A stretch of DNA of 64,000 nucleotides, from assembly GCA_024742605.1 (NCBI GenBank), contig JANSYC010000009.1:1-64000 (forward strand), written 5' to 3'. Source of the stretch: Alphaproteobacteria bacterium (GTDB lineage: Bacteria; Pseudomonadota; Alphaproteobacteria; Thalassobaculales; Thalassobaculaceae). The notes under the pieces were generated by a model. The model was not told the origin of the DNA and did not search any database. It saw only the letters and a program-made list of their open reading frames with translations. Position 1 is the stretch's first letter. Each line of letters opens with the position of its first letter. Shown here in pieces: positions 32,478 to 51,105 of this stretch. The position numbers and the translations under genes are program-made.

Positions 32478-34460
32478 GTGGAACTCAAAAGCTTACGTAT
32501 CCAGAACTTCCGTTCCGTCGAGGACTCCGGAGAGTTCACCGTCGAGCATCTCACATGCCTCGTAGGTAAGAATGAGGCAGGAAAGACCGCTGTTCTTCAG
32601 GCGATAGCTGGCCTGAATCCCCATCCTGCAACGCCGTTCGCGTATGAGCTGGAACGCGACTACCCGAAGCGTTATCTGGCTCGGTATAGGGAGCGGCACG
32701 ACGGCAAAGAAGCCGAAATCATCCGCTCGGTCTGGGAGCTGAGCGAGGGAGAAATCAATGAATTGAAGGGAGAGTTCGGCCCGGAAGCGTTCACTGGCAA
32801 GACGATTATTGTGTCTCGCTCTTACAACTCGACTGGTACGGCTTGGAGACTTCCGATCGACGAGGCGAGTGCCATCGCCTTCCTCATCTCGCGGCATGGC
32901 TTTTCAGCTGCGGAGAAGAGTCAGGTTGGCAGTCCGACGACCATTACCGAGCTCATCGCGAAGCTCACCGAGCTTCAGGCGAATGCTAAGCACAAGGCGT
33001 TGCTCGACCTGGTGAACGCCTACCCGAACAAATCGATCCTCCGTAAAGCGCGAGAGATCCTTGAGCCGAACTTCCCCCAGTTCATGTATTTCTCAAACTA
33101 CGACCGCATGAATGCGATGGTGCATCTGCCATCGCTCAACGTCCAGGCGAGCGACAATACGCTGTTCAGCAATGAGAAATACCGGGGCGACCGGCTCTTT
33201 TGGGAGTTTCTCGAATATTCTGGCGTGCCCCTGTCTGAGATATTGGGCGCGACGACGTTCGAAAGCTTCAACGCAAAGCTGCAAGCTGCATCGAACGTGC
33301 TCACGGAGGAAATCCTCGAATACTGGACCCAGAACCAGGACATAGAGATACGTGTGAACGTTGCCGAGGGCCGTCCCGGCGATCCAGCGCCCTTCAACTC
33401 GGGCGCAGTCGGGCGCGCCCGTATCTACAACCTGCTTCACAAGGCCGACACGTCATTCTCGGAACGGAGCGCGGGCTTTACGTGGTTCTTCTCATTCCTC
33501 ATCAAGTTCGATCGCGTCAAAAAGGATGCTACGGGTAAGGTCTTCCTGCTTCTTGACGAGCCGGGCCTAACACTTCACGGCCTCGCCCAAGCTGATCTGC
33601 TGCGCTATTTCACCGAGAAGCTCGAACCGCACCACCAAATCATCTATTCGACCCACTCACCCTTTATGGTGCCGCACGACAACATCATGGCCTCACGGAT
33701 AGTAGAGGATCTCGTGAAGGTCGATACGCGTGGACGGCGCACCCCGACGGGTACAATGGTGCGTGAAGACGTGCTTAAGGCCGACAAGGACTCTGTGTTC
33801 CCCCTCCAGGGAGCGCTCGGCTACTCGCTAACCCAATCGCTCTTCATCGGAAAACACACGATACTCGTCGAGGGGCCAAGCGACATTCTCTATCTGCAGG
33901 CGCTTTCAGCTGAACTACTCCGCCGCAAGCGAACCGGTCTTGATCCAGAATGGGTTATGTGCCCGGCTGGTGGCATCGACAAAATCCAGTCGTTCGTTTC
34001 CCTCTTCGCAGGCAACAGCCTCGATGTGATTGCGCTCTCCGACTACACTAAGAAGGACAAGTCCAAGCTGGAGAGCCTCAGGAACTCCGAAGTCATCAAG
34101 GACGGCGGTGTGCTGTCGATCGCCGACTTTGTGGCCCAGGAAGAGGCAGACATTGAGGACCTCTTCGATCCGCAACTGTTCTGTTCGATTGTTAATGGTA
34201 CCTACGAGCTAACGGACGGACAGAAGCTTGATCCAGTCAAGTTAAAAGCCGCAGACGAGAACACCGAGCGTCAGGTGAAGATGGCAGAGACGTACTTCAA
34301 TATGCTTCCAGAGCCAACACCGCTCTACAGCCACTTTACCCCGGCTTCCTGGCTGCTGATCCACCCCGAGACACTCGATGGTGATGCAGAGTCGGTCCTC
34401 AAGACACTTGAACGCGCTGAGACCCTTTTTAAAGCGCTCAACGGGCTGATCGCACGGTAA
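32478..34460 (+). CDS. OLD-family ATP-dependent nuclease (AAA ATPase plus TOPRIM)
   Basis: The 660-residue protein joins an ABC-type ATPase and a C-terminal TOPRIM nuclease, like phage P2 OLD and related defence proteins. Visible motifs: Walker A GKNEAGKT at 30-37, signature SERSAGFTWF near 330, Walker B VFLLLDEPGLTLH near 355, H-loop STHSPF near 392, TOPRIM Glu in LVEGPSD near 464, SDYTKKDK near 520 and an acidic DIEDLF near 558. The second acid of the usual D-x-D is Thr here. The GTG start has a GGTGAGG site. No GajB-like helicase follows, so it is not a Gabija pair. A stand-alone anti-phage role is inferred. Confidence 0.82.
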   Translation: MELKSLRIQNFRSVEDSGEFTVEHLTCLVGKNEAGKTAVLQAIAGLNPHPATPFAYELERDYPKRYLARYRERHDGKEAEIIRSVWELSEGEINELKGEFGPEAFTGKTIIVSRSYNSTGTAWRLPIDEASAIAFLISRHGFSAAEKSQVGSPTTITELIAKLTELQANAKHKALLDLVNAYPNKSILRKAREILEPNFPQFMYFSNYDRMNAMVHLPSLNVQASDNTLFSNEKYRGDRLFWEFLEYSGVPLSEILGATTFESFNAKLQAASNVLTEEILEYWTQNQDIEIRVNVAEGRPGDPAPFNSGAVGRARIYNLLHKADTSFSERSAGFTWFFSFLIKFDRVKKDATGKVFLLLDEPGLTLHGLAQADLLRYFTEKLEPHHQIIYSTHSPFMVPHDNIMASRIVEDLVKVDTRGRRTPTGTMVREDVLKADKDSVFPLQGALGYSLTQSLFIGKHTILVEGPSDILYLQALSAELLRRKRTGLDPEWVMCPAGGIDKIQSFVSLFAGNSLDVIALSDYTKKDKSKLESLRNSEVIKDGGVLSIADFVAQEEADIEDLFDPQLFCSIVNGTYELTDGQKLDPVKLKAADENTERQVKMAETYFNMLPEPTPLYSHFTPASWLLIHPETLDGDAESVLKTLERAETLFKALNGLIAR

Positions 34461-36357: not shown

Positions 36358-36900
36358 TCAGGCTCGTTTCTCTTCTTCGAGAGACTCTGCGTTTAGCTGG
36401 TGCAGTGCAATTTTGGCATTGAGTGCCGTCGCTGCTTTTCCCGCGCGCAACCACCCGTTAGCGCGTTCGAAGTTCATGCGCGCGCGGCGGCCACCCAGCC
36501 CAGGCTGAGCGATGGCGGCAATCACGTCCGCCACTTCAGAGATACGATAGAGCCCGCTGGCCACCGCGGGAGGCATGGTGCGCTGCTGAAGGGACTGCCG
36601 TTTCACTTCTAATCGCTGAGCTACGTCAGCCAAGCTCACCAAATCTGGCCGGACTTCGCGCAACTTCGTACCCTCGGGGAGGTTCTTCAAGATAGCCCGA
36701 GCTGCAGCCAGGATGACTGCCTCAGGATCTTCCCCAATTGCTTCTAGCTCAACGGCCAACAGCCGAGGATCACCGGAGCCGATAATCGCATCATGGTAGC
36801 CAGCTTCGAATACAGCATCGGAAAGCTCAAAAGCATCGTGTTCGCCGGCTGGAAGCGCATAGACGAGCTCAAACTCAAACCGGTCGGTCATCTTCGTCAT
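36358..36900 (-). CDS. DNA-binding protein, partner of the HicA-like protein
   Basis: The 180-residue protein begins with a region (DRFEFELVYALPAGEHDAFE) that could be a small ligand- or toxin-binding fold. The centre, VSLADVAQRLEVKRQSLQQR, reads as a helix-turn-helix of the excisionase/MerR type, followed by SGLYRISEVADVIAAIA. The start ATG overlaps the stop of the upstream gene by four bases, so the two are co-translated. It is enclosed by the two palindromic repeat arrays. I infer that it is the antitoxin/regulator of a pair and may bind the repeats; I cannot name the family. Confidence 0.65.
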   Translation of the reverse strand: MTKMTDRFEFELVYALPAGEHDAFELSDAVFEAGYHDAIIGSGDPRLLAVELEAIGEDPEAVILAAARAILKNLPEGTKLREVRPDLVSLADVAQRLEVKRQSLQQRTMPPAVASGLYRISEVADVIAAIAQPGLGGRRARMNFERANGWLRAGKAATALNAKIALHQLNAESLEEEKRA

Positions 36901-37166
36901 CCTTCTTTTGCGGTCTTATCCAGTGGGCTGGTGCATCCCTGAACTTTGCTAATCAACTTAGCAGCATGCGATCCAGGATTTTCCGGTGTCGAACTGATCG
37001 ACATCTGACAATACTGACCGCAGCGACACTCATCAGTTCGCTGGGGACATCTCAAGAGCCCCCATGCATGCCCTTTACCCTTCCGCCTAATGATCATCCA
37101 GCCGAGGTCTTCGGCAGCTTGCAGTGCGTCCTCGACCTCTTTCTTCGGATGTCTATCACGTGACAA
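36897..37166 (-). CDS. Small HicA-like protein, candidate toxin
   Basis: The 89-residue protein starts at a TTG at 37166 (start consistent with related proteins beginning with S/A-R-x-RHPKK). KEVEDALQAAEDLGWMIIRR and GKGHAWGLLRCP resemble the double-stranded RNA binding fold of HicA toxins, with a histidine in GHAW. A cysteine cluster follows (CP, CRCGQYC), then the conserved STPENPGSHA. The downstream overlapping gene encodes a DNA-binding protein. HicA-type mRNA interferase activity is inferred from pattern only; the cysteine cluster is unlike classic HicA. Confidence 0.55.
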   Translation of the reverse strand: MSRDRHPKKEVEDALQAAEDLGWMIIRRKGKGHAWGLLRCPQRTDECRCGQYCQMSISSTPENPGSHAAKLISKVQGCTSPLDKTAKEG

Positions 37167-38304: not shown

Positions 38305-41085
38305 ATGAATGCCGTTGAAATCGAAGAGGCAATCACTGCTCTTTCCGAAGAGCCGTTTGATCCGGCTGAATTTCCTTTCAAATTCCTGGAAGCGTTTGGG
38401 AACAAGCCTGCGACGATCAAAAAATTACGAAGCGGGGATTCAAATCGGTCGGATATCGAAAACTGTGTCCTGCAACGGAGCAACATCCATATTGCAATCT
38501 GCCGCGAAGGAGATGTTGCGAGCACGCTCGCCGCATTGAAGGACAGCCCTGCTACCACAAGGGCTAAAGCCAAATTTATCCTGGCAACGGACGGCATTGA
38601 TCTCGCTGCAGAGGACTTGGTCAATGACGACCAGGTTGCCTGCAATTACGCCGACTTTCCCAACCATTTTGGCTTCTTCCTGCCGCTGGCAGGTATCACA
38701 ACGGTTAAGCAGGTTCGCGAAAGTTCCTTCGACATTAGAGCCACGAGCCGTCTCAACAAGCTTTATGTTGAACTCTTAAAGGACAATCCTGACTGGGCTC
38801 ACTCAGAACGCCGCCGCGACATGAACCATTTTATGTCGAGGCTCATATTTTGCTTCTTCGCTGAGGACACAGGTATTTTCTTAGGTGAAGATTTGTTCAC
38901 CTCCACAATTTCAACGATGAGCTCATCTGCTTCCTCGAACACACACGAGGTGATCGGTGAGCTTTTTCGGGCGATGAACACGAAGCCCGCAGACCGAGAT
39001 GTAGCCAAGATCGCTCGATGGGCGAATGGTTTTCCCTACGTGAACGGAGGTTTGTTCTCAGGATCAACTGAATCCCCACGATTTAGTAGGTCTGCCCGAA
39101 CATATCTTCTTCATATAGGCCGGCTAGATTGGCAGAAAATTAACCCGGACATATTCGGGTCGATGATCCAGGCCGTTGCAGATGATGAAGAACGCGGCGC
39201 GCTCGGAATGCACTACACCAGCGTCCCGAACATCCTAAAGGTCCTCAACCCCCTCTTTCTCGACAACTTGCGCGAGAAGCTTGAGGAGGCGGGCGACAAC
39301 GGGCGGAAGCTGCTCAATCTTCGAAACCGCATGGCCAAGATCAGAGTTTTTGATCCGGCCTGTGGTTCGGGCAACTTCCTCGTCATCGCCTATAAGGAAA
39401 TGCGCGCCATTGAGGCTGAAATCAATAAGCGGCGTATTGAGGAAGATCGGCGCTCGGAGATACCGCTAACGAATTTTCGGGGAATTGAGCTTCGGGACTT
39501 CCCTGCCGAGATCGCGCGGCTCGCACTCGTCATCGCCGAATATCAGTGTGACGTGCTCTATCGCGGCCAGAAGGAAGCCTTGGCAGAGCTTCTGCCGCTC
39601 AATGCTATGAACTGGATAACCTGCGGCAACGCCCTTCGGCTCGACTGGCTGAGCATCTGCCCTCCCACGGGGACGGGCGTGAAGCACCATGCTGACGACC
39701 TGTTTCACTCACCACTTGACCAAGCGCAGATCGACTTCGAGAACGAGGGTGGTGAAACCTATATGTGCGGAAATCCACCTTATGCTGGCCTCAGCTCACA
39801 AACAGACGAACAAAAAGCTGATCTCAAAGCTCTGTTTGAGGATAGGTCCAAATACTGGAAATCATTCGACTACGTTATGGGATGGTTCTGGAAAGCATTT
39901 ATGTACATGCAGCAGCAACCGTCTAAAGCCGCATTCGTTTCCACAAACTCCATATGCCAAGGGCAGCTCGTGCCGATGTTTTGGCCGCTCGTGTTGACCA
40001 AAGATACTAGTATTTTCTTTGCCCATGAATCATTTAGGTGGAGCAATTTAGCTACCAATAATGCTGGCGTAACCGTTGCCGTTATTGGCTTATCAAATAT
40101 TTCGGTCGGTAAGAAGAGGCTATTTGAAATCACGGCGAGTGGAGAGACCACCGAGAAGGAAGTTGAAAATATCAACGCATACTTGGTTCCAACGAAAGAC
40201 ATATTTGTTGAAGCTTTGTCTAAGCCATCGGCAGATCGGCCTCTGATGATTTATGGTAACAAACCTACTGATGGTGGAAATCTGATAATGTCGACCGATG
40301 AGGCCAGGAAAATATTGAACCATCATCCAGATGCGCAGAAGTTCCTGAGGCCTTATTTTGGCTCGGAAGATTTCATCAACGCATCTCCAAGGACTTGTGT
40401 TTGGGTCGGAGATAGCGAGAAAGAAGCTGCTTCAAAAGTTCCTCAACTTAAGAGACGCTTTGAATCCGTCAGTAATTTTCGTGCGTCTAGCAAAGCCAAG
40501 GAAACACGGGTTGCCGCAAGTTACGGGCACAGATTTCGCCAAATTCAGGGTAAACCGGGCAACAAATCCATTATCATTCCAAGGCATTCTAGCGAGACAA
40601 GATCGTATCTGCCGGTAGGTTTGCTTCCGAAGGGTGCTATTGTATCAGATGCGGCATTTGCCATTTATGATGCTCCATCTTGGAGTTTGGCGATACTGCT
40701 TTCCAATTTGCACCTTGTTTGGGTGGCGGCGGTCTGTGGAAAATTGGAAACTCGGTATCGCTACTCAAACACTCTTGGGTGGAACACTTTTCCTATTTCT
40801 AAGCTGACTGAGAAAAACAAGGAAGATTTGGCACGCTGCGCCGAAGACATTCTTCTAGCGCGCGAGGCTCACTTTCCCGCCACGATCGCAGAGCTCTACG
40901 AGCCGGACAAGATGCCTGCCAATCTGCGGGCCGCACATGATCGCAATGACGAAGTTTTGGAACGTATCTACATCGGCCGCCGCTTCAAAAATGATACGGA
41001 ACGGCTAGAAAAACTCTTTGAGCTTTACACTAAAATGACGACAGACGCTGCCTCTGCTGGGAAAACAAAGAGAGAGGCATCCTGA
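38305..41085 (+). CDS. DNA methyltransferase of a three-gene restriction-modification-like operon
   Basis: The 926-residue protein is a class I (N6-adenine type) DNA methyltransferase: SAM motif I VFDPACGSGNFL at 348-359 and catalytic NPPY at 490-493. A C-terminal target recognition region of the MmeI/type IIG style contains FLRPYFGSEDFI near 685 and TRYRYSNTLGWNTFPIS near 815. The N-terminal 170 residues do not show a PD-(D/E)XK nuclease motif, so cleavage probably lies in the partner GIY-YIG protein. The helicase gene starts 2 bases after the stop. The set resembles gene trios annotated next to each other in many genomes; the mechanism is not established to my knowledge. Confidence 0.86.
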   Translation: MNAVEIEEAITALSEEPFDPAEFPFKFLEAFGNKPATIKKLRSGDSNRSDIENCVLQRSNIHIAICREGDVASTLAALKDSPATTRAKAKFILATDGIDLAAEDLVNDDQVACNYADFPNHFGFFLPLAGITTVKQVRESSFDIRATSRLNKLYVELLKDNPDWAHSERRRDMNHFMSRLIFCFFAEDTGIFLGEDLFTSTISTMSSSASSNTHEVIGELFRAMNTKPADRDVAKIARWANGFPYVNGGLFSGSTESPRFSRSARTYLLHIGRLDWQKINPDIFGSMIQAVADDEERGALGMHYTSVPNILKVLNPLFLDNLREKLEEAGDNGRKLLNLRNRMAKIRVFDPACGSGNFLVIAYKEMRAIEAEINKRRIEEDRRSEIPLTNFRGIELRDFPAEIARLALVIAEYQCDVLYRGQKEALAELLPLNAMNWITCGNALRLDWLSICPPTGTGVKHHADDLFHSPLDQAQIDFENEGGETYMCGNPPYAGLSSQTDEQKADLKALFEDRSKYWKSFDYVMGWFWKAFMYMQQQPSKAAFVSTNSICQGQLVPMFWPLVLTKDTSIFFAHESFRWSNLATNNAGVTVAVIGLSNISVGKKRLFEITASGETTEKEVENINAYLVPTKDIFVEALSKPSADRPLMIYGNKPTDGGNLIMSTDEARKILNHHPDAQKFLRPYFGSEDFINASPRTCVWVGDSEKEAASKVPQLKRRFESVSNFRASSKAKETRVAASYGHRFRQIQGKPGNKSIIIPRHSSETRSYLPVGLLPKGAIVSDAAFAIYDAPSWSLAILLSNLHLVWVAAVCGKLETRYRYSNTLGWNTFPISKLTEKNKEDLARCAEDILLAREAHFPATIAELYEPDKMPANLRAAHDRNDEVLERIYIGRRFKNDTERLEKLFELYTKMTTDAASAGKTKREAS

Positions 41086-41087
41086 CG

Positions 41088-43139
41088 ATGTCCGAGCACA
41101 AATCCATACCCTCCGTGTCCGTTACCTACGCCCAGAACGGCAGCTCTAAGAAACCCAATGAGCTGGGAATGCGGGTTATGCAGGAGCGCGCCTACGATAA
41201 GCGTGGTGAGCAGTATCTGCTGATCAAATCGCCACCTGCGTCGGGTAAGAGCCGCGCCTTGATGTTCATTGCCCTGGACAAGCTTGCGAACCAGGGATTG
41301 AAGCAGGCGATCATTGTGGTGCCTGAGAAGTCCATTGGTGCGAGCTTCAACAACGAGCCCCTCAGCAAGTTCGGCTTTTGGGCGGATTGGAATGTTGAAG
41401 CGAAATGGAACCTTTGCAACGCACCGGGAGAGGACGGGGGCAAGGTCAACTCCGTCAAAGCATTCCTGGAAAGCTCAGATAAGGTGCTGGTTTGTACCCA
41501 TGCAACATTCCGGTTCGCGGTCGATCGGTTCGGCGTTGCAGCGTTTGATGATCGGCTGATTGCCGTAGATGAGTTTCACCATGTGAGCGCTAACCCAGAC
41601 AATAAGCTGGGTAAGCATCTGGGCGACCTCATAGCGCGCGACAAAGTTCATATTGTAGCGATGACCGGCTCATACTTTCGAGGCGATTCTGAAGCGGTTT
41701 TGTCGCCTCAGGATGAAACGAATTTTGAAACCATCACCTACACGTACTACGAACAGCTGAATGGCTACGACTATCTTAAGACACTGAATATTGGATATTT
41801 TTTCTATTCCGGCTCCTACGCTGACGAGATCCTTGAGGTTTTGGATTCCCACGAGAAGACGATTGTCCATATTCCCAATGTGAATTCCCGTGAAAGCACG
41901 AAGGATAAGATCAAAGAGGTCGATCATATCATCAACCAACTCGGAACGTGGCTCCACGCTGATCCAGTCACCGGCTTCCATTTGGTTGAGACACCCGATG
42001 GACGAACCATCAAGATTGCAGATTTGGTCGATGATGATGTGGCGAAGCGGGACAAGGTTTCGGCAGCCCTTAAAGACCCCGATGAAAAGAACAACCGTGA
42101 CCACGTCGATATCATCATCGCACTCGGCATGGCCAAGGAGGGGTTCGATTGGATCTGGTGTGAACACGCCCTTACCATTGGGTATCGTCAAAGCCTGACA
42201 GAAATCATCCAGATTATCGGTCGAGCAACGCGCGATGCGCCTGGCAAAACGCATTCTCGTTTCACCAACTTGATTGCTGAGCCTGACGCTTCTGAGGAGG
42301 CCGTCACAGAAGCGGTAAACGATACGCTGAAGGCAATTGCCGCGAGCCTCCTTATGGAGCAGGTGCTCGCGCCAAAATTCAATTTTACCTCCAAACAGCT
42401 TACCAGTGGGCCGGTTGAAGGTTTCGACTATGGCGAAGGTGGATACGATCCTAAGCAAGAGAACATCGGGTTCAACCCGGGAACCGGCCAATTTCAGATC
42501 GAAATTAAGGGCCTAGCCGAACCGAAAAGCGATTCCGCGAAACGAATTTGTTCGGACGACATCAACGAAGTCATAGCTGCCTTCGTCCAAGATAAATCAT
42601 CGTTGGAAAAAGGCCTTTTTGACGATGAAACGGTGCCTGAGGAGCTTACTCAAGTTCGCATGGGGAAGATTGTTAAGGACAAGTACCCAGATCTCGACCC
42701 CGAAGATCAGGAGGCGGTGCGTCAACACGCGATCGCCGCTTTAAACCTAACTCAGCAAGCCAAAGCAGCTGTAAACGCTGGTCAGATCGATATCGAGACC
42801 GGCAACACGGCGCTTATCGACGGGGTCCGTAAGTTCGCGATGGATGTTCGCGATCTCGACATCGATCTGATCGACCGGATCAATCCGTTTGGCGAGGCGT
42901 ATTCGATTCTCGCCAAGTCGATGAATGAGCAAAGCCTCAAAGAGATTGCTGCCATAATCTCGGCCAAGAAAACCGCGATCACGCCCGACGATGCTAAAGC
43001 GTTCGCCATTCGTGCAGTGCAGTTCAAAAGAGACAATCAACGCAGCCCTTCATTTACTTCGACAGACGCTTACGAGCGGAAATTGGCTGAAGGAGCGGCC
43101 GCCTTTATGCGGTTCAAGAAGGAAGGCCGTTATGACTGA
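41088..43139 (+). CDS. SF2 DEAD/DEAH-like helicase of the restriction-modification-like operon
   Basis: The 683-residue protein is a superfamily 2 helicase. It has Walker A SPPASGKS at 48-55, motif II DEFH at 161-164 (a DEAH variant), motif III MTGS at 192-195, and motif VI QIIGRATRD near 370-378. The remaining 300 residues are largely helical and without visible nuclease motif. It resembles the ATPase part of type III Res subunits but is separate from the nuclease. It sits between the methyltransferase gene (2-base gap) and the GIY-YIG gene (8-base overlap). It probably translocates along DNA to find or activate cleavage. Confidence 0.86.
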   Translation: MSEHKSIPSVSVTYAQNGSSKKPNELGMRVMQERAYDKRGEQYLLIKSPPASGKSRALMFIALDKLANQGLKQAIIVVPEKSIGASFNNEPLSKFGFWADWNVEAKWNLCNAPGEDGGKVNSVKAFLESSDKVLVCTHATFRFAVDRFGVAAFDDRLIAVDEFHHVSANPDNKLGKHLGDLIARDKVHIVAMTGSYFRGDSEAVLSPQDETNFETITYTYYEQLNGYDYLKTLNIGYFFYSGSYADEILEVLDSHEKTIVHIPNVNSRESTKDKIKEVDHIINQLGTWLHADPVTGFHLVETPDGRTIKIADLVDDDVAKRDKVSAALKDPDEKNNRDHVDIIIALGMAKEGFDWIWCEHALTIGYRQSLTEIIQIIGRATRDAPGKTHSRFTNLIAEPDASEEAVTEAVNDTLKAIAASLLMEQVLAPKFNFTSKQLTSGPVEGFDYGEGGYDPKQENIGFNPGTGQFQIEIKGLAEPKSDSAKRICSDDINEVIAAFVQDKSSLEKGLFDDETVPEELTQVRMGKIVKDKYPDLDPEDQEAVRQHAIAALNLTQQAKAAVNAGQIDIETGNTALIDGVRKFAMDVRDLDIDLIDRINPFGEAYSILAKSMNEQSLKEIAAIISAKKTAITPDDAKAFAIRAVQFKRDNQRSPSFTSTDAYERKLAEGAAAFMRFKKEGRYD

Positions 43140-44325
43140 CATCGACTTGGATGAACTGGCGGAGGCCCTTGGGCCTGATTTTGATGTCCCTGAGAAGAAA
43201 ACCGGGAGGTCCTCTAGGGATGAACGGATCATCGCCGGGTTCGAGGAGATACAGCGGTTTGTCGAAGAAAACGGCCGGTCCCCACAGCATGGTGAGGGAC
43301 GGGATATTTTCGAGCGCCTCTACGCGGTGAGGCTCGATCGTCTCCGAGATCAAGAAGAGTGTCGCGTCCTGCTGGAGAGCTATGACCACCAGGGTTTGCT
43401 TGGCGCACAGAGCGTGGACTCAAGCCCTGGCGCTGATGAAATAGACGATGATGAACTGCTCGCTGAGCTGTCAGATTTGGATGAGGACACGCCTAGCATC
43501 ACCGAGCTGCGTCACGTGCGTACGGCGGCAGAAAAACGAGCCGCCGAGGATATCGCGAGCCGCCAGAGATGTAGCGACTTTGATCACTTCAAGCCTCTCT
43601 TTGAACAGGTCCAGAAGGAAATTCAAACGGGCATCCGGGAGACACGCCCGTTCGAGCTCAAAGCTGACATTGAGGTCGGTCGTTTTTTCATCGTCGGCGG
43701 ACAGAAAGCTTACGTCGCAGAGAAGGCGGAAGAGTTTACCAATGCCCAAGGGCGAACCGATGCCCGCCTCCGAGTTATTTTCGACAATGGCACCGAGAGC
43801 AATATGCTGCTTAGGTCCTTGCAGCGCGCGTTGAATGAGGATGATGCCGGTCGGCGCATAACGGATTCAACAGCGGGCCCACTCTTTTCTGATGCGGCTA
43901 GCGATGGAGATGAAGCGAGCGGCACAATCTATGTTCTTCGAAGCTTGTCAGAGCTGCCATTGATCGCTGAGAACCGCGATCTTGTTCACAAGATCGGCGT
44001 TACAAATCTGAGTGTGGAGAAGCGCATCGCTGGGGCGCGGCTTCAGCCTACATTTCTCATGGCTGAAGTTGAGATTGTTGCTCGATACGAGCTCTACAAC
44101 ATCAATAGGGCTAAACTGGAAAACCTGATCCACCGAATTTTCGACCCCGCACGGCTCGATATCAAAATAAAGGACCGTTTCGGAAATCCAGTGGTACCAC
44201 GAGAGTGGTTTCTAGTTCCCCTTTCTGCGATTGATGATGCGGTAGAGAAAATAAAGGATGGCTCAATCACCAGGTACGTTTACGATCCTTCGGAGGCCCG
44301 CCTCCGGGAACGGGCGCAAGAATAA
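43132..44325 (+). CDS. GIY-YIG nuclease (T5orf172-type) of the restriction-modification-like operon
   Basis: The 397-residue protein has an acidic, helical N-terminal two thirds and a C-terminal T5orf172/GIY-YIG nuclease domain from about 265 to 385. Visible pieces are IYVLRSLSELPL, HKIGVTNLSVEKRIAGARLQ with the conserved Arg, KLENLIHRIF with the likely catalytic Glu, and VVPREWFLVPL. The ATG at 43132 has an AAGGAAGG site and overlaps the helicase stop; the frame is open further upstream. It is likely the cleaving subunit of the operon. Mobile-element nucleases with this domain also exist, but the tight operon argues for restriction. Confidence 0.84.
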   Translation: MTDIDLDELAEALGPDFDVPEKKTGRSSRDERIIAGFEEIQRFVEENGRSPQHGEGRDIFERLYAVRLDRLRDQEECRVLLESYDHQGLLGAQSVDSSPGADEIDDDELLAELSDLDEDTPSITELRHVRTAAEKRAAEDIASRQRCSDFDHFKPLFEQVQKEIQTGIRETRPFELKADIEVGRFFIVGGQKAYVAEKAEEFTNAQGRTDARLRVIFDNGTESNMLLRSLQRALNEDDAGRRITDSTAGPLFSDAASDGDEASGTIYVLRSLSELPLIAENRDLVHKIGVTNLSVEKRIAGARLQPTFLMAEVEIVARYELYNINRAKLENLIHRIFDPARLDIKIKDRFGNPVVPREWFLVPLSAIDDAVEKIKDGSITRYVYDPSEARLRERAQE

Positions 44326-44428: not shown

Positions 44429-46462
44429 CTAAGGCAAAGTAGCGTGATTTATTGAACAACCAGACAATCTAAAACCCACGTTGCGAGTCAAAAATGCCGG
44501 CTTCCGCTTCAGCGCGGTAACAAGGTCGCTTGTCGCTCCCACAATTATCACTTGGCGCTCTGCCCTGGTAATTGCCGTGTAGAGCCAAGTCGGTTCTATA
44601 AGCAATGACGGTTCAATGAGAACGATAACTCGCTCGGCCTGCGATCCCTGCATCTTGTGCGCTGTGAGTGCGTAGGAGAGGGAGATGTTACCTAGTCTCT
44701 CTTCGTCAAACTCGTATATTTCCCCCATGAACTCGCAGGTCAGCTTATGGTCATGCGGCTGCGCGCCCGTGACGTACCCCAGAACTCCATTGAAGAGTCC
44801 TCGCTTGTAGTCGTTGACTGTGTGAACGACCGGATCGCCGGCGCTGAAGCTTTGGCCGCCGGTTCCCCTCAGGTAAGGTTGACCAGCGCGGTACGCATCA
44901 TGGAAGTGATGATTAAACCGACCTACCGTCTCGTTTCGGGCCGCCAAAATTTGAACCGAGTGATCTTGAGCGGGGAAGCCGCCCAGATCGGTGATCACGG
45001 ATTCAGCCTGTTCCAGTAACTCTCGGTCAGAGCAATCCAGCAGGAACACGCCATCGGATTTGCCTGCGTATCTGTTCCACTGCAGCTTGCTGCGTCCCGG
45101 GCTTCGGATCGCCTGAGCCACCACCGGAATACCTGAAGCCTCGGTTTGCCGATGGATGGTCGTCAGGCGCGTCGCGTATCGGTCGTCGCCCGCCAGAAGG
45201 TGAAACACGAGACCCGGGCCGATCGGGGGCAACTGACCGCTATCCCCGAGCAAACAGATCGATGCGCCGCGGCGTTCGACCCAATCAATAATTTCCGCCC
45301 AGTCCCCGAGCGCCGGCATGGAGGCTTCATCGATGAGCACCAGGCTCTTTGAGCCAAGGTGGATCTGATTGTACCGGATCAACTCAGGCTGTTCGGGGGC
45401 GTTGTCCTCGCCTTCGCGCAGCTCTCGCAGCAGCCGGTAGATCGTTCGCGCCAATCGTTTGGTCTTCTTCGACAGGACCTGGGCCGCCTTGCCGGACAAG
45501 GTCGCCATCTCGACGTTGCCGCCCGTCAAAATTTCCCACGCCTCCACAAGGGCCAACGCTGTTGTGGACTTTCCTGTTCCAGCTGAGCCAGCGATCACCG
45601 AGGCTCGCTGCCCAAGAGCAAATTCGATCGCGTGACGCTGTTCTGGGTGCAGATTGTTCCGTTGAGAGACCGTATCGAGCACCAGTGAGATTTCTGCGGC
45701 GGTGTAGCGGCGTTCCTCCCGCCAAGCCTCCAAGCGCTCGAGGACACGGTTCTCCATGAACCGGCATCCGGGCGGGCGGGCCAGCTTGCACTCGTAAAAC
45801 AGCCGCTGTTTGATCAGAGCGTGATGGATAGCCCTTTTAGCGAGTTCGCGGGAGCCTAGTAGGCGCTCCATACCGTTTCTCAGATCGGTCATAGAGGCCG
45901 CTGTATGCCCCCGCTGGCGGCGATCTGACCATAACCTCTCAAGCGCCCCCAGAAGTCGCTCAGGAGCCTCTAAAGCGCCTTTGAGTCCATGTTTGTTCTC
46001 AAGGACGGGTATGCCGATCCGGTCGGCTCTAGACCACGACAGAATGGATACGAGCGTGTAGGGATTCTCGTTCAGAACCTCGACGGCCCGCTCGCCGAGC
46101 AATCCTATGATCCGGCGGGCAACTACGGCATCTGTTCCGGCTACCCCGTGTTCCTCAAGCCAGGCCATCGCGGACCACTCGGCTTCGGCAGCCGGCCAAG
46201 CGACATGCATCTGCAGGGCAAGTCTCGGCCCGAGGTTGGGTAGAAATTTGCTCAGGAAGGGAACCAGTTCTTCCACGACGCTGTCATAATCCGCCAGCAC
46301 CCTGGGGAGGTCCTCGCCGAAGTGGCTCAGCAGTTTTTCGGCCCTGGACAGGCCGATATTGTGAAAGCGCATCAGAAACTGTTTGCGCAGTCCTTCAGGT
46401 TGGAACAGGTGCTGTGCCTTCGCCGAGATCCGAGCAACCGGATTTGCTTCAAGCGCCGTCAC
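44429..46462 (-). CDS. RecD-like/TraA-type SF1 DNA helicase
   Basis: The 677-residue protein resembles RecD2-type 5'-3' helicases. Helix-hairpin-helix-like segments in the N-terminal 200 residues are followed by Walker A GSAGTGKST near 289-297, Walker B VLIDEAS near 372, GDSGQLPPIGPG near 400, and motif V/VI AHKMQGSQ and YTAITRAERQVIIVG near the end. The frame is open upstream, but GTG at 46462 has GAGGAG ahead and overlaps the previous gene by 14 bases. It ends the leftward recombinase operon, so it may help excision, transfer or processing of the island. It converges with the GIY-YIG gene. Confidence 0.83.
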   Translation of the reverse strand: MTALEANPVARISAKAQHLFQPEGLRKQFLMRFHNIGLSRAEKLLSHFGEDLPRVLADYDSVVEELVPFLSKFLPNLGPRLALQMHVAWPAAEAEWSAMAWLEEHGVAGTDAVVARRIIGLLGERAVEVLNENPYTLVSILSWSRADRIGIPVLENKHGLKGALEAPERLLGALERLWSDRRQRGHTAASMTDLRNGMERLLGSRELAKRAIHHALIKQRLFYECKLARPPGCRFMENRVLERLEAWREERRYTAAEISLVLDTVSQRNNLHPEQRHAIEFALGQRASVIAGSAGTGKSTTALALVEAWEILTGGNVEMATLSGKAAQVLSKKTKRLARTIYRLLRELREGEDNAPEQPELIRYNQIHLGSKSLVLIDEASMPALGDWAEIIDWVERRGASICLLGDSGQLPPIGPGLVFHLLAGDDRYATRLTTIHRQTEASGIPVVAQAIRSPGRSKLQWNRYAGKSDGVFLLDCSDRELLEQAESVITDLGGFPAQDHSVQILAARNETVGRFNHHFHDAYRAGQPYLRGTGGQSFSAGDPVVHTVNDYKRGLFNGVLGYVTGAQPHDHKLTCEFMGEIYEFDEERLGNISLSYALTAHKMQGSQAERVIVLIEPSLLIEPTWLYTAITRAERQVIIVGATSDLVTALKRKPAFLTRNVGFRLSGCSINHATLP

Positions 46463-46979
46463 GCAGCAACTCCTCAACAACCGCAGCCGGCAATTCCCCG
46501 TTCTGATAGATGGCGCGAAGCGCGGATTTGTAGCGATCTCGCTGTTTGGTGATCTGCGCGACTTCAAGCGTCAAGTGCTCGATCTGCCGGCGGAGGCTCA
46601 CCGAGTCTTCTGATGCCCGCTTTTCCGTGGCAGAGAGTTCCTTTATCCGAGCATCAGCCAGCCGTTCCTCTGGGCTGCGTGTTCGAGCGCCAATTGGCGC
46701 GAGTTCCATCTGAGCTGCGACCTGATCGACAGCCTCTTTCAGAGCCTTTCTGTTGTGGAAGTGTTGTGTGTCCGAGGGCTTCACCAGTTCAGGTTCGCGT
46801 TCGATCAGAGCCTTGACGAGCCCTTCCACGTTGACCTTACCGTCTATCGTCTTCGGCAGTGTCGGGCCACTTTCCGGATCTGCCTGATAAGCCTCGAGCG
46901 CCTCGTCAAGATAGGGCAGGAGGGCATCCATGAGAGCGCCTTCCACGTCCGTTCGGCGTGGTGACTTACTCATACTCAT
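46449..46979 (-). CDS. Coiled-coil protein of the recombinase operon
   Basis: The protein of about 176 residues begins MSMSKSPRRTDVEGALMDAL (ATG 46979 or 46973) and overlaps the end of the small HTH gene. The C-terminal half, from about residue 105, is a predicted coiled coil: LADARIKELSATEKRASEDS, then LRRQIEHLTLEVAQITKQRD. No enzyme motif is visible. By position it could be a structural or DNA-bridging helper of the recombinases. I do not recognise the family. Confidence 0.68.
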   Translation of the reverse strand: MSMSKSPRRTDVEGALMDALLPYLDEALEAYQADPESGPTLPKTIDGKVNVEGLVKALIEREPELVKPSDTQHFHNRKALKEAVDQVAAQMELAPIGARTRSPEERLADARIKELSATEKRASEDSVSLRRQIEHLTLEVAQITKQRDRYKSALRAIYQNGELPAAVVEELLRDGA

Positions 46980-47406
46980 AGTCTTGCCCGCGATAAATTT
47001 TGGGGATCGGAGCATTCAGGTTATCGGGTGTGAGACCCTTAAGGTGTCCCGCATTGTAGACGTAGCGGGCGAACCGCTCATCATAGGCTGCGATGACTTT
47101 TTCTTTGTCTCTTAGCTCCAGTTCAAGCTTCTGGATGTGCTGCTTGAGATCTTCGACCTCGGGATCTTCGTCGCCCAAAATGCTGCCGATGGTACCGTCT
47201 CTTAAGGCCTTACGAAGCTCGCTCTTCTTGGTCTCGAAAGCGGAGACGATCGCCGGTCTAGCGTTCAGTGTGGGATAGGACCAACTGGCACCAAGCTTTT
47301 GTTGCAGAACTTCTCTGAGACCCCGCCACGTCAGTTTCGCACTTGGCCATTCGATGATTATCGCGATGATCCGTTGCGTATCCCGGTCGGTGATATGCCT
47401 AGCCAT
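46966..47406 (-). CDS. Small HTH/coiled-coil protein, GinD-like
   Basis: The 146-residue protein has an N-terminal HTH-like region (LTWRGLREVLQQKLGASWSY, about residues 25-44) and a coiled coil at about 80-115 (LKQHIQKLELELRDKEKVIA). It overlaps the third recombinase gene by 8 bases. GInt islands carry a fourth small gene, ginD, required for recombination; Tn554-like elements have a similar small tnpC. Size, position and layout fit this role. The assignment rests on context plus the HTH pattern, not on catalytic residues. Confidence 0.68.
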   Translation of the reverse strand: MARHITDRDTQRIIAIIIEWPSAKLTWRGLREVLQQKLGASWSYPTLNARPAIVSAFETKKSELRKALRDGTIGSILGDEDPEVEDLKQHIQKLELELRDKEKVIAAYDERFARYVYNAGHLKGLTPDNLNAPIPKIYRGQDYEYE

Positions 47407-49501
47407 TGACTACCTCCGTAATCGGTCGGCCGTCTTGCATCGTGACCTGAACCAGAGTTCCGTCGGGTATTTCCGAGTTGTCGTGGATGCTGAGAATTGC
47501 CTTAGAGAATGCCAGGGTTCGACCTAGATGTTCGAGGTGATTGTTGGCTCCCAACGTGCCGTCTTCGTCTTCCTCAATTGCCCGTTCAAGCAGCCAAGCG
47601 TTGTCGTCGGAGTCGCGCTGGACTTTGTTGCGGTTCAACTCATTGCCTTTCTCGACAACCAGTTGGGCACAGCCAACGCAGCGGCCGTGTTCTTGGCAAG
47701 GAAGGCTCGACCAATCGAGGATGCAGTAGCCGTAGTCTGTGACATGGGCGGATTCGAGCACGGTCTGACGGTAGGTTGCACGGTCGGCCGGCTCCATCTT
47801 TGCAAGAATTCGCGCGAGCGGGCCCTCAGCCTCGCCTTCTTCAAATTTTTTGCGAAGGCTCCGACCGCGCTGCACCGGCGTTCTGTGGTCGTAGGCTTCG
47901 TTCTGAGAGATATCTTTTCGGCCAAAATGTCGCGCCAGGAGGTGTTCTGGCAACCCGCCTTCGGCGAGGACCGTGTTCAGATAATGCCTCGGCTTGTGCG
48001 TGCTGAACTGGATGATCGTGCCGGTCTCGTCGCGGATATCGAACTTCTCGAATACGGATTCTTGCTGACCCCGGTCACCCTTCTTGCTTACGAGCCAAGA
48101 ATAGATCTGATTATCGCTAACAGGGATCACGGTGCCGGGGACGACGGCCTTTTGCGAGGCAAAGAAATGGACCTCGGCGAGGAAGAGCGAATCGCGCATT
48201 TCTTGCCGAACAGGTTTAGTCATCAGCGGATTGAGATTTGATTTTGCCCTGATGTAGTCGTGCAATTTGCCGATCGTCGTGGCTTTGACCTGAGCCCTTG
48301 GAGCGGTGCTTTTTCTAGCGTGCTTCGCTTGATTCTGCGGCGTGCCGGTGCGCGGCTTGTCGACCATCGAAAACTCGATGCTACCGCTGGAGAGGGCCTG
48401 TTTGCCCAGCCCTAGTTCACGCTCAAGGGCCGTCAGAAGGATGTTCTGATCCTCTGGCAGCAGTTGTAGGCTCGCGGGTAGCGGGGCCTTACCTGGGTTT
48501 TCATGCATGTAGCGAGCGTTGCTTCGAGCCTGCTCTGTAATTGCACCGATGTCGGCGATCGCACGTCTAACTACGTCGACTAGGGCCGTAGGCATCCACT
48601 TGATCATCGTCTTCGTGTGCCCGCCCTTCTCAGGCCAGTACCGAAGACCAAGGTCGATTTTCTGCTTGCCAAAGCGGTCGAGCAACGGCGATCCATCTTT
48701 GTGGCGGGCAGGTTGCTCGACAACGCAATCGGCTGGGATCGTCAGAAGCTCATTGATCCTGAAGCCGCCGCAAATCAGAATCTCGACGGCGCGCTGGCGA
48801 AGCACGTCCGCAGGCGTTTCAACCAACTGGCTCGCCCGGGCGATGCCGGAGATGTGCGCATCCGTCAGCATCTTGTCTCCGGTATAATCCTGTGGATTCT
48901 CCCGGATCGTCTTGGCTTTCCTGCCGCTAGCCTCCCATGGACGGCCTTTGGGCTGTTTCCACTCGAAAGGCACCACGAGAAGGTTTTTGCGTCTCAGTTC
49001 CTTGGCTATGCGTTGAAGGTACGCGCCGACTTGATACGCGGTAGAAGGTTTTTCTCGTTTCTGGAGATTGCGTTGAGCCGCATCGAAATCGGATACGGTG
49101 AGTCTTGTTGGGTCGTAGTCGCATCGCGCCAATTGCGCATGAAGATATCGCCCCGCTCTTACAAACGTAGTGTGTGTGCCGACACCCTTGGGTTTTATGT
49201 GTTCCTCGAAGCGCATGAGTGCCTTGAGGAACGAGCAGAAGGGTTCACGTATCAGCTCTTGCGATTTGGTCTTCCAGCCTTCCGATAGGGTGGTGAAATG
49301 GACGCTTGTAGCGGCTCGCGAAGACTCTCGGCCAACCTCGCTGATCTGCCAGGTCATGGCATCAAAATTACTGCCGAAGGACACCGGCAGCGCTCTGGAT
49401 TCCTGGATATAATCCTGCAACGCCGAAGTCTTGTCGCGCTCAACGCTTGTTATCAAGCGCGCAACGTTTGATCCAGTGAGAGCCGAGTTTCTGGGCTTCA
49501 T
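47399..49501 (-). CDS. Large tyrosine recombinase, third of trio (GinC-like)
   Basis: The 700-residue protein carries tyrosine recombinase motifs: first Arg in GGFRINELLTIP near residue 246, box II THKPRHYLNTVLAEGG near 505, HFGRKD, and the likely nucleophile in EAYDHRT near 540. A long C-terminal extension contains cysteines (CILDWSSLPCQEHGRCVGCA), a possible zinc-binding element. The gene starts inside the stop of the second recombinase (four-base overlap). Three different recombinases in one operon plus a small HTH gene is the plan of GInt islands and of recombinase-in-trio elements. Confidence 0.82.
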   Translation of the reverse strand: MKPRNSALTGSNVARLITSVERDKTSALQDYIQESRALPVSFGSNFDAMTWQISEVGRESSRAATSVHFTTLSEGWKTKSQELIREPFCSFLKALMRFEEHIKPKGVGTHTTFVRAGRYLHAQLARCDYDPTRLTVSDFDAAQRNLQKREKPSTAYQVGAYLQRIAKELRRKNLLVVPFEWKQPKGRPWEASGRKAKTIRENPQDYTGDKMLTDAHISGIARASQLVETPADVLRQRAVEILICGGFRINELLTIPADCVVEQPARHKDGSPLLDRFGKQKIDLGLRYWPEKGGHTKTMIKWMPTALVDVVRRAIADIGAITEQARSNARYMHENPGKAPLPASLQLLPEDQNILLTALERELGLGKQALSSGSIEFSMVDKPRTGTPQNQAKHARKSTAPRAQVKATTIGKLHDYIRAKSNLNPLMTKPVRQEMRDSLFLAEVHFFASQKAVVPGTVIPVSDNQIYSWLVSKKGDRGQQESVFEKFDIRDETGTIIQFSTHKPRHYLNTVLAEGGLPEHLLARHFGRKDISQNEAYDHRTPVQRGRSLRKKFEEGEAEGPLARILAKMEPADRATYRQTVLESAHVTDYGYCILDWSSLPCQEHGRCVGCAQLVVEKGNELNRNKVQRDSDDNAWLLERAIEEDEDGTLGANNHLEHLGRTLAFSKAILSIHDNSEIPDGTLVQVTMQDGRPITEVVNG

Positions 49502-51105
49502 GGTGCACCCGCCGCTTCGCGCTTGCAGAGTTCGACTACGTGCGCGATCGCGCGGATCGTATTGTCATTGATCTGGGTATTCTTGGGATCTGCGCCAGCT
49601 TCAAGTTTGCGCTCCCGCTCGTCCATAAGGACATCGAAAACGGCCTGATGGGGCCCCTCCTTCCATGGCCTGAAGTTCGAACAAGTATAGCAGGCCAGTG
49701 GCGCGTACAGCCCGCAATAACCGAAGGAACCGCAGCTTCCGACGGGTTTGGCTAGTCGAGCCGCTGCCGGTGGATAAATGCGGCTGGCGGGATCATCTCC
49801 TCGTTCCGCCTCGCTCTCGTGGGCGACCAGCTTGCCAAGGAACATCTGTGCGACAGCAATCAGCTGTGTGTTTGCGCGGTCGAGATGCCGAACCATCTCC
49901 GAGCGCACGTCGAAGTAGATATGAACATTCTGCAAGTCGGAGTGGTCGAGTGCCTCGGCGACTTGTTGTGGGCTAGCGCCGTCGTTCACCAGCCGTGTCG
50001 CGAACGTGTATCTGAGCCGCCGGGGCGTGACATGTAAGGGCACGTTTGGATCGACCGATGTTCTGACATCGAGTTTGTGGCAGGCGGTGCGGACTATTGT
50101 GGTCAATTCCCTTGCATCGAAATGCCACGCGAACTGGGAAGCATCTGTTTCTAGCCATTTGCTTGGCTCTGAGCGCATAAGGAGTGGTTTGTGGAAGTCC
50201 TGCTTCTCCCACACATCAAAGTGCTCCCGGATCTTTTTATTGTGCCCGATAAGTTCTTCAAGCATTCGACCTAGGAATGGGGCGATCTTCCTTTCCTTAA
50301 CCTCCTCGCGGATACCTCTGCCTCGCTTCTTGATACGGGGAATTGAGAGCGTGTAGACGCTATTGTCGTCTTGGTCATCGAGTTCTACTCGTAGGTCCTC
50401 TTCGTTTAAAAAAGCAATGTTCCGGGGGTTGCTTCCCAGGGCAATCAACAGCCAGACAACGCATTGCTCCTGCAGCGTTAGAATGGGAGTCTGGCTCGTT
50501 GCTTGGTCACGTAACTTGTCGGTCAGAGCAATAAAGTCGACATCGGTTATAGGCCCTTCGTTTGGGTCCTGCGATAGAACTGCAACGCCCTTAGCGTTGT
50601 TACCGATTATCAAATCGGCCAGTTTATCAGCCTCTTCTGGGTCAAATCCTGGAAAACCCATATCTGTGCACCAGATGTACCAGCGACGTACATCTGACTC
50701 ATAGTTCATGTAGTTTAATATACCTTCTGCTTTGCATAATTCACCGACTTCCCTAACAATACTGCTAGATATCGAGTGCTTATGATTCTTTAATATACTG
50801 CTGATTTTCTGTAGTCTGTTTGCGCTGTTCTCCGCTGTTTTTGCAGAGAGAAATTTTATTTGATCTACTACATATAGAGCAATTGCTCTCTTGTATTTAG
50901 CCGGCACAGCATCAAATGATTTCCATGATATTCCTGTGTATCCACCAAATACGCTCCAACGATCTATTGTCAAATCAACGCTGTATCCTTCTCTATCCAT
51001 AATGGACGATGGGAGATCTGGCATGCCGGGAATGGAAATGCCATAGGACGATCCAGAGAGATCTTCAGTCTTTGCAAAGAGGGGCAGTTGGTCTGTGTCT
51101 TTCAT
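49498..51105 (-). CDS. Tyrosine recombinase, second of trio (GinB-like)
   Basis: The 535-residue protein has the recombinase C-terminal fold. Box I Arg is probably in LIALGSNPRNIAFLNEED near residue 228. Box II reads TPRRLRYTFATRLV, where the usual leading His is Arg, then EALDHSDLQNVHIYFDV with the likely Tyr nucleophile. A cysteine-rich tail (FGYCGLYAPLACYTCSNF) follows. The start overlaps the first recombinase stop by four bases. The DNA of its first 130 codons is AT-rich compared with the rest. It should act with the other two recombinases on the island ends. Confidence 0.82.
   Translation of the reverse strand: MKDTDQLPLFAKTEDLSGSSYGISIPGMPDLPSSIMDREGYSVDLTIDRWSVFGGYTGISWKSFDAVPAKYKRAIALYVVDQIKFLSAKTAENSANRLQKISSILKNHKHSISSSIVREVGELCKAEGILNYMNYESDVRRWYIWCTDMGFPGFDPEEADKLADLIIGNNAKGVAVLSQDPNEGPITDVDFIALTDKLRDQATSQTPILTLQEQCVVWLLIALGSNPRNIAFLNEEDLRVELDDQDDNSVYTLSIPRIKKRGRGIREEVKERKIAPFLGRMLEELIGHNKKIREHFDVWEKQDFHKPLLMRSEPSKWLETDASQFAWHFDARELTTIVRTACHKLDVRTSVDPNVPLHVTPRRLRYTFATRLVNDGASPQQVAEALDHSDLQNVHIYFDVRSEMVRHLDRANTQLIAVAQMFLGKLVAHESEAERGDDPASRIYPPAAARLAKPVGSCGSFGYCGLYAPLACYTCSNFRPWKEGPHQAVFDVLMDERERKLEAGADPKNTQINDNTIRAIAHVVELCKREAAGAP

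What the first reader, a model, noticed from the sequence alone, without database searches (positions are those of the whole stretch)
38305..44325. Restriction-modification-like trio: methyltransferase, free SF2 helicase, GIY-YIG nuclease
The three genes are tightly coupled (2-base gap and 8-base overlap). The methyltransferase carries its own target-recognition region but no visible nuclease. The helicase has motor motifs only. The nuclease is of T5orf172/GIY-YIG type. This does not match the subunit plans of types I, II, III or BREX/DISARM, so it may be a distinct restriction class in which a translocating helicase directs a GIY-YIG enzyme.
Basis: partly seen in the sequence, partly recalled or inferred. 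Interest (0 to 1): 0.65.

Follow-up and report, generated by a model that had tools for sequence, protein, structure and literature searches.

The report
Three-gene restriction system with GIY-YIG nuclease
These three linked genes are a complete copy of a known but little-studied bacterial DNA-defence system, in which a DNA-marking enzyme has lost its own cutter and works with a separate DNA motor and a separate cutter.

Summary
It is not a new restriction class. Blow et al. 2016 (PMC4752239) describe exactly this plan (prototype OspHL35III, several hundred REBASE members). Bacillus subtilis DnmA-YeeB-YeeC is the same trio (PMC7261158, PMC9973331). I file it as a new member of a known Type IIG-like kind.

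New computed points:
- The methyltransferase keeps an MmeI_N domain whose D...ExK motif is gone. All 15 such proteins sampled lie with the partner genes or their remains. None of the 11 motif-bearing relatives checked does.
- Catalytic residues of all three proteins are invariant in 74-108 homologues.
- The target-recognition cassette evolves independently of the motor, while the N-terminal half of the methyltransferase tracks it.
- MmeI contact-residue rules predict methylation at NCGR(m6A)C.
- In 52 of 101 loci, a slot between methyltransferase and motor holds changing extra genes (RhuM, YhcG, AlbA_2 and others). RhuM and YhcG also sit inside Type I operons, RhuM inside a Type III-like one.

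Restriction activity of this copy, and the cutting mechanism, are inferred and untested.

The parts
38305..41085 (+). MmeI-family gamma-class m6A DNA methyltransferase with its own TRD (DnmA/YeeA-like; modification and specificity subunit)
   Evidence: Pfam MmeI_N/hel/Mtase/TRD/C; PADLOC Type IIG model 948 bits over residues 5-914; MmeI 5hr4 E=1.4e-138; DPACGSGNF invariant and NPP[YF] nearly so in 74 homologues
38305..38784 (+). MmeI_N domain (residues 1-160): PD-(D/E)XK-derived, catalytic D...ExK motif lost
   Evidence: PF20464 E=2e-33; alignment with intact relatives that read 'DLFWPGVLLVEQK'
39745..40824 (+). Exchangeable specificity cassette, about residues 481-840 (NPPY region plus TRD); contact residues Y650 K653 R760 D782 A783 E815 R817 R819 (MmeI 642/645/751/773/774/806/808/810)
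   Evidence: TRD mean pairwise identity 42% against 66% for the MTase domain; no correlation with motor distances; G+C 45.3% against 52.6% and 52.9% on either side; contacts mapped
41088..43139 (+). SF2 motor/helicase (YeeB-like translocase), Walker A SGKS52-55, DEFH161-164, GR378-379, R382
   Evidence: Pfam DEAD/ResIII; motif residues invariant in 108 homologues except one F163L; fold matches to SF2 helicases and EcoR124I HsdR
43132..44325 (+). GIY-YIG (T5orf172/MUG113) nuclease (YeeC-like): helical N-terminal domain, SH3/Tudor/KOW-like barrel about residues 173-245, nuclease domain 264-374
   Evidence: Pfam; Y267, K287, G289, R298, E330, H334, E358-W359-F360 invariant in 106 homologues; model mean pLDDT 84; barrel matches Z about 5
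41086..41087 (+). Junction between methyltransferase and motor: empty here (2 bases), an accessory-gene slot in 52 of 101 loci

Best explanation
This is an intact, horizontally acquired restriction-modification system of the OspHL35III / DnmA-YeeB-YeeC kind. The methyltransferase recognises an asymmetric site, predicted 5'-NCGRAC-3', and marks adenine 5 on one strand (m6A). Its MmeI_N domain has lost the nuclease active site and, with the helical spacer, probably serves as the docking surface for the motor. When the methyltransferase meets an unmethylated site, it loads the ATP-driven SF2 motor. The motor, carrying or recruiting the GIY-YIG protein through its C-terminal region, moves along the DNA. 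Cutting is probably licensed when two complexes from oppositely oriented sites converge. That would spare newly replicated host DNA, where one site of each such pair is always methylated. Shown by sequence: gene content, intact catalytic residues, loss of the D...ExK motif, TRD with MmeI contact logic. Inferred: docking, translocation, convergence rule, cleavage.
For: Same three-protein plan described as an R-M system in PMC4752239 and as dnmA-yeeB-yeeC in PMC7261158 and PMC9973331. Trio conserved across phyla. Active-site residues of all three invariant. D...ExK loss goes with presence of the partners: 15 of 15 nuclease-dead N-domains lie in a trio or trio remnant, 0 of 11 D...ExK-bearing relatives do. 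Contact pairs co-vary as in MmeI: positions 806/808 are E-R or K-D in 56 of 74, no shuffle of 2000 reaches this (rules in PMC4833311). N-domain and spacer distances track the motor (r 0.65, 0.62), the TRD does not (r -0.03); motor C-part tracks the nuclease N-terminal domain (r 0.76). T5orf172 nuclease Odn cuts DNA using the conserved E (PMC8263062). A reported deletion of dnmA or yeeB homologues in Vibrio crassostreae raised phage sensitivity (cited in PMC9973331).
Against: In B. subtilis, dnmA-yeeB-yeeC did not restrict transformation or three phages, and its motif is not avoided by phages. The authors call it a relic. Co-variation of distances can reflect recombination history rather than contact; the nuclease N-terminal region and the motor C-terminus are also physically adjacent in the genome. 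No translocation, cleavage or methylation was measured for this copy. The motor model is of modest confidence.
Confidence: 0.72

Rival explanations
1. Orphan methyltransferase with decayed restriction partners, kept for gene regulation, as proposed for B. subtilis DnmA.
For: B. subtilis precedent: methylation affects expression, no restriction seen.
Against: Here all three genes are full length with every catalytic residue intact, and motor and nuclease active sites are invariant across more than 100 homologues from at least eight phyla, which is purifying selection on restriction functions. The B. subtilis proteins are reported to lack several stretches of their C-terminal domains.
Confidence: 0.12
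2. BREX-like exclusion: methylation marks self, and the motor and GIY-YIG protein block phage replication without cutting DNA at or near sites.
For: MmeI-type methyltransferases also serve BREX; the partners are separate proteins. PglX and DrmMI profiles match the methyltransferase weakly.
Against: No PglZ, BrxC, DrmA or DrmB type gene was seen among the flanking proteins scanned. The nuclease keeps its catalytic R and E in every homologue.
Confidence: 0.1
3. Free-standing nuclease: the GIY-YIG protein finds DNA by its own helical and barrel domains, and the motor only clears or remodels DNA (for example removing the methyltransferase), so cutting does not depend on translocation between sites.
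For: The nuclease has an N-terminal helical domain with an HNH-repeat-like stretch below Pfam's cut-off and an SH3/Tudor-like barrel. T5orf172 enzymes such as Odn act alone.
Against: The motor-nuclease gene junction is almost never interrupted, while the methyltransferase-motor junction often is, and motor C-part and nuclease N-part track each other, which suggests a motor-nuclease unit.
Confidence: 0.15
4. A new restriction class.
For: Does not fit the subunit plans of Types I, II, III, BREX or DISARM in their textbook forms.
Against: Already described as a group with several hundred members (PMC4752239).
Confidence: 0.02

Closest known systems
OspHL35III-type Type IIG-like R-M systems (Blow et al. 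2016, PMC4752239)
   Same: MmeI-like methyltransferase/specificity protein without the N-terminal nuclease motif, plus separate translocase and GIY-YIG endonuclease proteins.
   Different: No difference found in plan. The OspHL35III sequence itself was not available for alignment; target site and host differ.
Bacillus subtilis DnmA(YeeA)-YeeB-YeeC (PMC7261158, PMC9973331)
   Same: Same gene order and protein families; DnmA is an MmeI homologue without the nuclease motif that makes m6A at the asymmetric site GACGAG.
   Different: B. subtilis YeeB and YeeC are reported to miss stretches of their C-terminal domains and no restriction was seen; here motor and nuclease are full length and intact. 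A different target site is predicted.
MmeI (Type IIL/IIG; structure 5hr4, PMC4833311)
   Same: All five MmeI domains; E806/R808, A774/R810, Y642/K645 contact residues shared; one-strand methylation expected.
   Different: MmeI cuts with its own N-terminal PD-ExK domain and has no partners; here that active site is lost and motor plus nuclease are separate.
Type ISP (LlaGI) and Type III R-M
   Same: Asymmetric site, one-strand marking, SF2 motor; likely two-site (head-to-head) logic. The same RhuM accessory family sits between Mod and the helicase gene in a Type III-like operon.
   Different: ISP is one polypeptide with an Mrr-like nuclease; Type III Res carries its own PD-(D/E)XK domain. Here the parts are separate and the nuclease is GIY-YIG.
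AchA6III-type Type IIG-like systems (PMC4752239)
   Same: MmeI-like methyltransferase without nuclease motif and a separate restriction protein with a translocase.
   Different: There the nuclease is a PLD domain fused to the translocase.

Membership tests
OspHL35III / DnmA-YeeB-YeeC type R-M system | MmeI-like methyltransferase with its own TRD | tested here: met
OspHL35III / DnmA-YeeB-YeeC type R-M system | N-terminal PD-ExK motif absent | tested here: met
   no D...ExK in the window protein or its trio relatives, present in solo relatives
OspHL35III / DnmA-YeeB-YeeC type R-M system | Separate SF2 translocase protein | tested here: met
OspHL35III / DnmA-YeeB-YeeC type R-M system | Separate GIY-YIG (T5orf172) endonuclease protein with catalytic residues | tested here: met
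   role of the conserved E and R by analogy with Odn
OspHL35III / DnmA-YeeB-YeeC type R-M system | Gene order methyltransferase-motor-nuclease on one strand | tested here: met
   101 of 110 related loci
OspHL35III / DnmA-YeeB-YeeC type R-M system | m6A at a non-palindromic site | not testable with these tools
   No methylome; NCGR(m6A)C predicted from contact residues
OspHL35III / DnmA-YeeB-YeeC type R-M system | Restriction of unmodified DNA | not testable with these tools
   Published results conflict: none in B. subtilis, phage sensitivity of mutants in V. crassostreae
Type IIL (MmeI proper) | Active PD-(D/E)XK nuclease in the same polypeptide | tested here: not met
   Domain present, motif lost
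Type I R-M | Separate HsdS with two TRDs and HsdR with fused nuclease and motor | tested here: not met
   TRD lies in the methyltransferase; nuclease is a separate GIY-YIG protein
Type III R-M | Res subunit with C-terminal PD-(D/E)XK nuclease | tested here: inconclusive
   No nuclease family matched in the motor protein and its C-terminal third is mostly helical, but the model is of modest confidence
Type ISP (LlaGI) | Single polypeptide nuclease-motor-MTase-TRD | tested here: not met
   Three separate ORFs
BREX / DISARM | PglZ/BrxC or DrmA/DrmB partner genes next to the methyltransferase | tested here: not met
   None among the flanking proteins scanned, about 30-52 kb of the window

The most novel reading that the evidence does not exclude
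The dead nuclease domain of the methyltransferase has been repurposed as the loading dock for a motor-nuclease unit. The junction between the modification gene and the motor gene is a shared exchange point through which Type I, Type III and MmeI-type systems trade the same back-up effectors (RhuM, YhcG nuclease, AlbA_2 proteins), much as the anticodon nuclease PrrC is carried inside a Type I operon.
Probability: 0.4. Interest if true: 0.55.

Novelty: new member of a known kind. Interest (0 to 1): 0.33.

Why it matters
The kind is widespread (553 motor relatives confirmed in one capped scan of species genomes), yet in the papers read here no member has a demonstrated cleavage reaction and the best-studied one looks inactive. 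This copy is complete and comes with a concrete target-site prediction, so it is a good test case for how a one-strand-marking enzyme distinguishes self from newly replicated self. The accessory slot gives a list of candidate back-up defence genes.

Tried and rejected
(1) New class: rejected after the literature match. (2) Active PD-(D/E)XK in the methyltransferase: rejected by alignment with intact relatives. (3) Hidden nuclease in the motor: none by sequence or in the modest-confidence model. (4) BREX or DISARM membership: no partner genes seen. (5) Foldseek against PDB with the nuclease model found no GIY-YIG chain, only the central barrel; the GIY-YIG assignment rests on Pfam and invariant residues. 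(7) Search of phage records with the nuclease: no match. (9) No structured RNA in Rfam around the locus; promoter and terminator scans no better than shuffles or weakly so. (10) Morgan et al. 2009 (PMC2731913) is not held and is cited through later papers.
Full report
Observation. Three + strand ORFs lie at 38305-41085, 41088-43139 and 43132-44325, with a 2-base gap and an 8-base overlap. The first matches all five MmeI domain families over its length, a PADLOC Type IIG model at 948 bits and the solved MmeI structure 5hr4 at E=1.4e-138. The second is an SF2 DEAD/ResIII motor. The third is a MUG113/T5orf172 protein of the GIY-YIG clan.

The trio is a conserved unit. Searches in plasmids, class-level genomes (17 of 385 genomes have the motor) and species genomes (553 confirmed motor relatives, capped) gave 110 loci, the window's own among them. 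Of these, 101 carry all three genes. Of the nine others, four begin close to a contig end (L046, L056, L068, L109) and one ends there (L094). Two have the methyltransferase just beyond the fetched flank (L020 and L021, compare L130 and L127). One is degenerate (L002), and one is a plasmid fragment next to blaOXA-23 (L028). Hosts of the genome-contig set span Pseudomonadota, Bacillota, Acidobacteriota, Cyanobacteriota, Verrucomicrobiota, Nitrospirota, Myxococcota and Thermodesulfobacteriota. A 7.7 kb Pediococcus plasmid record lists only these three genes.

The methyltransferase has a nuclease-dead MmeI_N domain. MmeI_N relatives in the same class of bacteria fall into two sets. Stand-alone enzymes read ...DLFWPGVLLVEQK... 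or ...LEAK..., i.e. an intact D...ExK. The window protein and its trio relatives have lost all three residues. All 15 sampled nuclease-dead proteins lie in a genome with the motor, except one on a 5.5 kb contig, which is a decayed trio: a truncated methyltransferase followed by pieces of the nuclease gene. Eleven 16-kb neighbourhoods of D...ExK-bearing relatives hold no motor or nuclease homologue. By simple counting (15 of 15 against 0 of 11) chance is about 1 in 8 million, ignoring relatedness.

All three active sites are under selection. In 74 methyltransferases DPACGSGNF is invariant and the NPP[YF] motif nearly so. In 108 motors the SGKS, DEFH, TGS and Q..GR..R residues are invariant except for one F163L. 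In 106 nucleases Y267, K287, G289, R298, E330, H334 and the EWF motif are invariant. The T5orf172 nuclease Odn, with the same catalytic R and E and likewise no His/Tyr in the first helix, cuts DNA and is killed by mutation of the E (PMC8263062).

Specificity. MmeI contact rules (PMC4833311) transfer to this protein by alignment. E815/R817 (MmeI 806/808) give C at position 6. R760/D782 (751/773) give G at position 3. A783/R819 (774/810) give a purine at position 4. Y650/K653 (642/645) are as in MmeI and suggest C at position 2. Position 1 is open. The prediction is 5'-NCGR(m6A)C-3'. Across the family the 806/808 pair is E-R or K-D in 56 of 74, more than any of 2000 shuffles, so the code is in use. 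The TRD is the most variable domain (42% mean pairwise identity against 66% for the MTase domain). From about residue 480 to 840 its distances do not follow the motor at all, while residues 1-440 do. In the window this same cassette has 45.3% G+C between flanks of 52.6% and 52.9%. These are the marks of specificity exchange by recombination, as expected of an active R-M system.

Inter-subunit hints. Within the close clade, distances in the dead nuclease domain and spacer correlate with the motor (r 0.65 and 0.62) and the motor C-terminal part with the nuclease N-terminal domain (r 0.76); the TRD does not (r -0.03). The first pair is not explained by adjacency on the DNA, because the intervening TRD and C-terminal domain do not correlate. 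I read this as docking of the motor on the N-terminal part of the methyltransferase and of the nuclease on the motor's C-terminal part; recombination history could give the same pattern. The nuclease model (mean pLDDT 84) shows a helical N-terminal domain and a central SH3/Tudor/KOW-like barrel (Z about 5). The motor model (mean pLDDT 65.5) matches SF2 helicases including EcoR124I HsdR and has no visible nuclease domain.

An accessory slot. In 52 of 101 loci 0.4-4.3 kb lies between methyltransferase and motor, and in 39 of these an ORF starts inside the methyltransferase stop codon (4-base overlap). A few of the loci are the same contig drawn from two collections. The motor-nuclease junction is tight everywhere but in one locus (L011, 158 bases). 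Slot families recur: RhuM (8), AlbA_2/HATPase (7), YhcG/DUF1016 PDDEXK (5), PLD RE_NgoFVII-like (5), and several without a Pfam match. On the motor tree the slot changes state at least 23 times, 15 of them forced by well-supported branches. RhuM and YhcG relatives sit directly behind hsdM in Type I operons, and RhuM lies between mod and the helicase gene in a Type III-like operon; a fourth neighbourhood examined had no R-M genes. This parallels PrrC inside the EcoprrI Type I operon (PMC3874165). The slot of the window copy is empty. I did not find this slot described in the papers read.

What is known. Blow et al. [quoted passage not shown] Morgan et al. 2009, cited in PMC7261158 and PMC9973331, noted DnmA with YeeB and YeeC and proposed a Type I-like system. 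In B. subtilis no restriction of transformation or of three phages was found; in Vibrio crassostreae, deletion of dnmA and yeeB homologues reportedly raised sensitivity to some phages (as cited).

Mechanism. Shown by sequence: components, intact active sites, dead N-terminal domain, MmeI-type recognition. Inferred: the methyltransferase reads an asymmetric site and marks one strand, loads the motor at unmarked sites, and the motor-nuclease unit cuts after ATP-driven movement. One-strand marking leaves one daughter site unmarked after replication. A rule needing two opposed sites, as discussed for MmeI and Type III enzymes in PMC3874165, would spare the host, and a separate motor is a natural way to bring distant sites together.

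Verdict. Correct observation, known kind. The value lies in an intact copy with a testable target prediction, and in the family-level patterns above.

Noticed in passing
L014, L042, L047, L003, L018, L049 and others, between methyltransferase and motor genes: Accessory-gene slot filled in 52 of 101 trios with recurring families (RhuM, AlbA_2, YhcG/DUF1016, PLD and unknown 137-, 260- and 290-aa proteins). RhuM and YhcG are also found inside Type I operons (L142, L144) and RhuM in a Type III-like one (L143).
   Followed up: partly
L029:1-7677: A 7.7 kb Pediococcus pentosaceus plasmid record lists only the three genes of the trio.
   Followed up: no
L028:8001-10692: In Acinetobacter plasmids a truncated motor and GIY-YIG gene lie between ISAba1 copies next to blaOXA-23, apparently hitchhiking fragments of such a trio.
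   Followed up: no
L157 (G100:C102): Decaying trio: the start of a nuclease-dead MmeI-like methyltransferase followed directly by two pieces of the GIY-YIG gene, motor deleted.
   Followed up: partly
window 47399-52463 (- strand): Three consecutive overlapping tyrosine-recombinase genes with two small ORFs behind them (46449-47406), like a recombinase-in-trio or Tn554-type mobile unit next to the defence trio.
   Followed up: no
window 44429-46567 (- strand): RecD2-like SF1 helicase (NCBIfam helicase_RecD2 at 265 bits, below its cut-off of 500), convergent with the trio.
   Followed up: no
window 32478-34460: AAA_15 ATPase protein resembling OLD / PARIS AriA families, a second candidate defence gene upstream of the trio.
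   Followed up: no
window 36358-37166 (- strand): Two small overlapping genes; the 180-aa protein matches a PADLOC candidate family (PDC-M06B, 2e-20).
   Followed up: no
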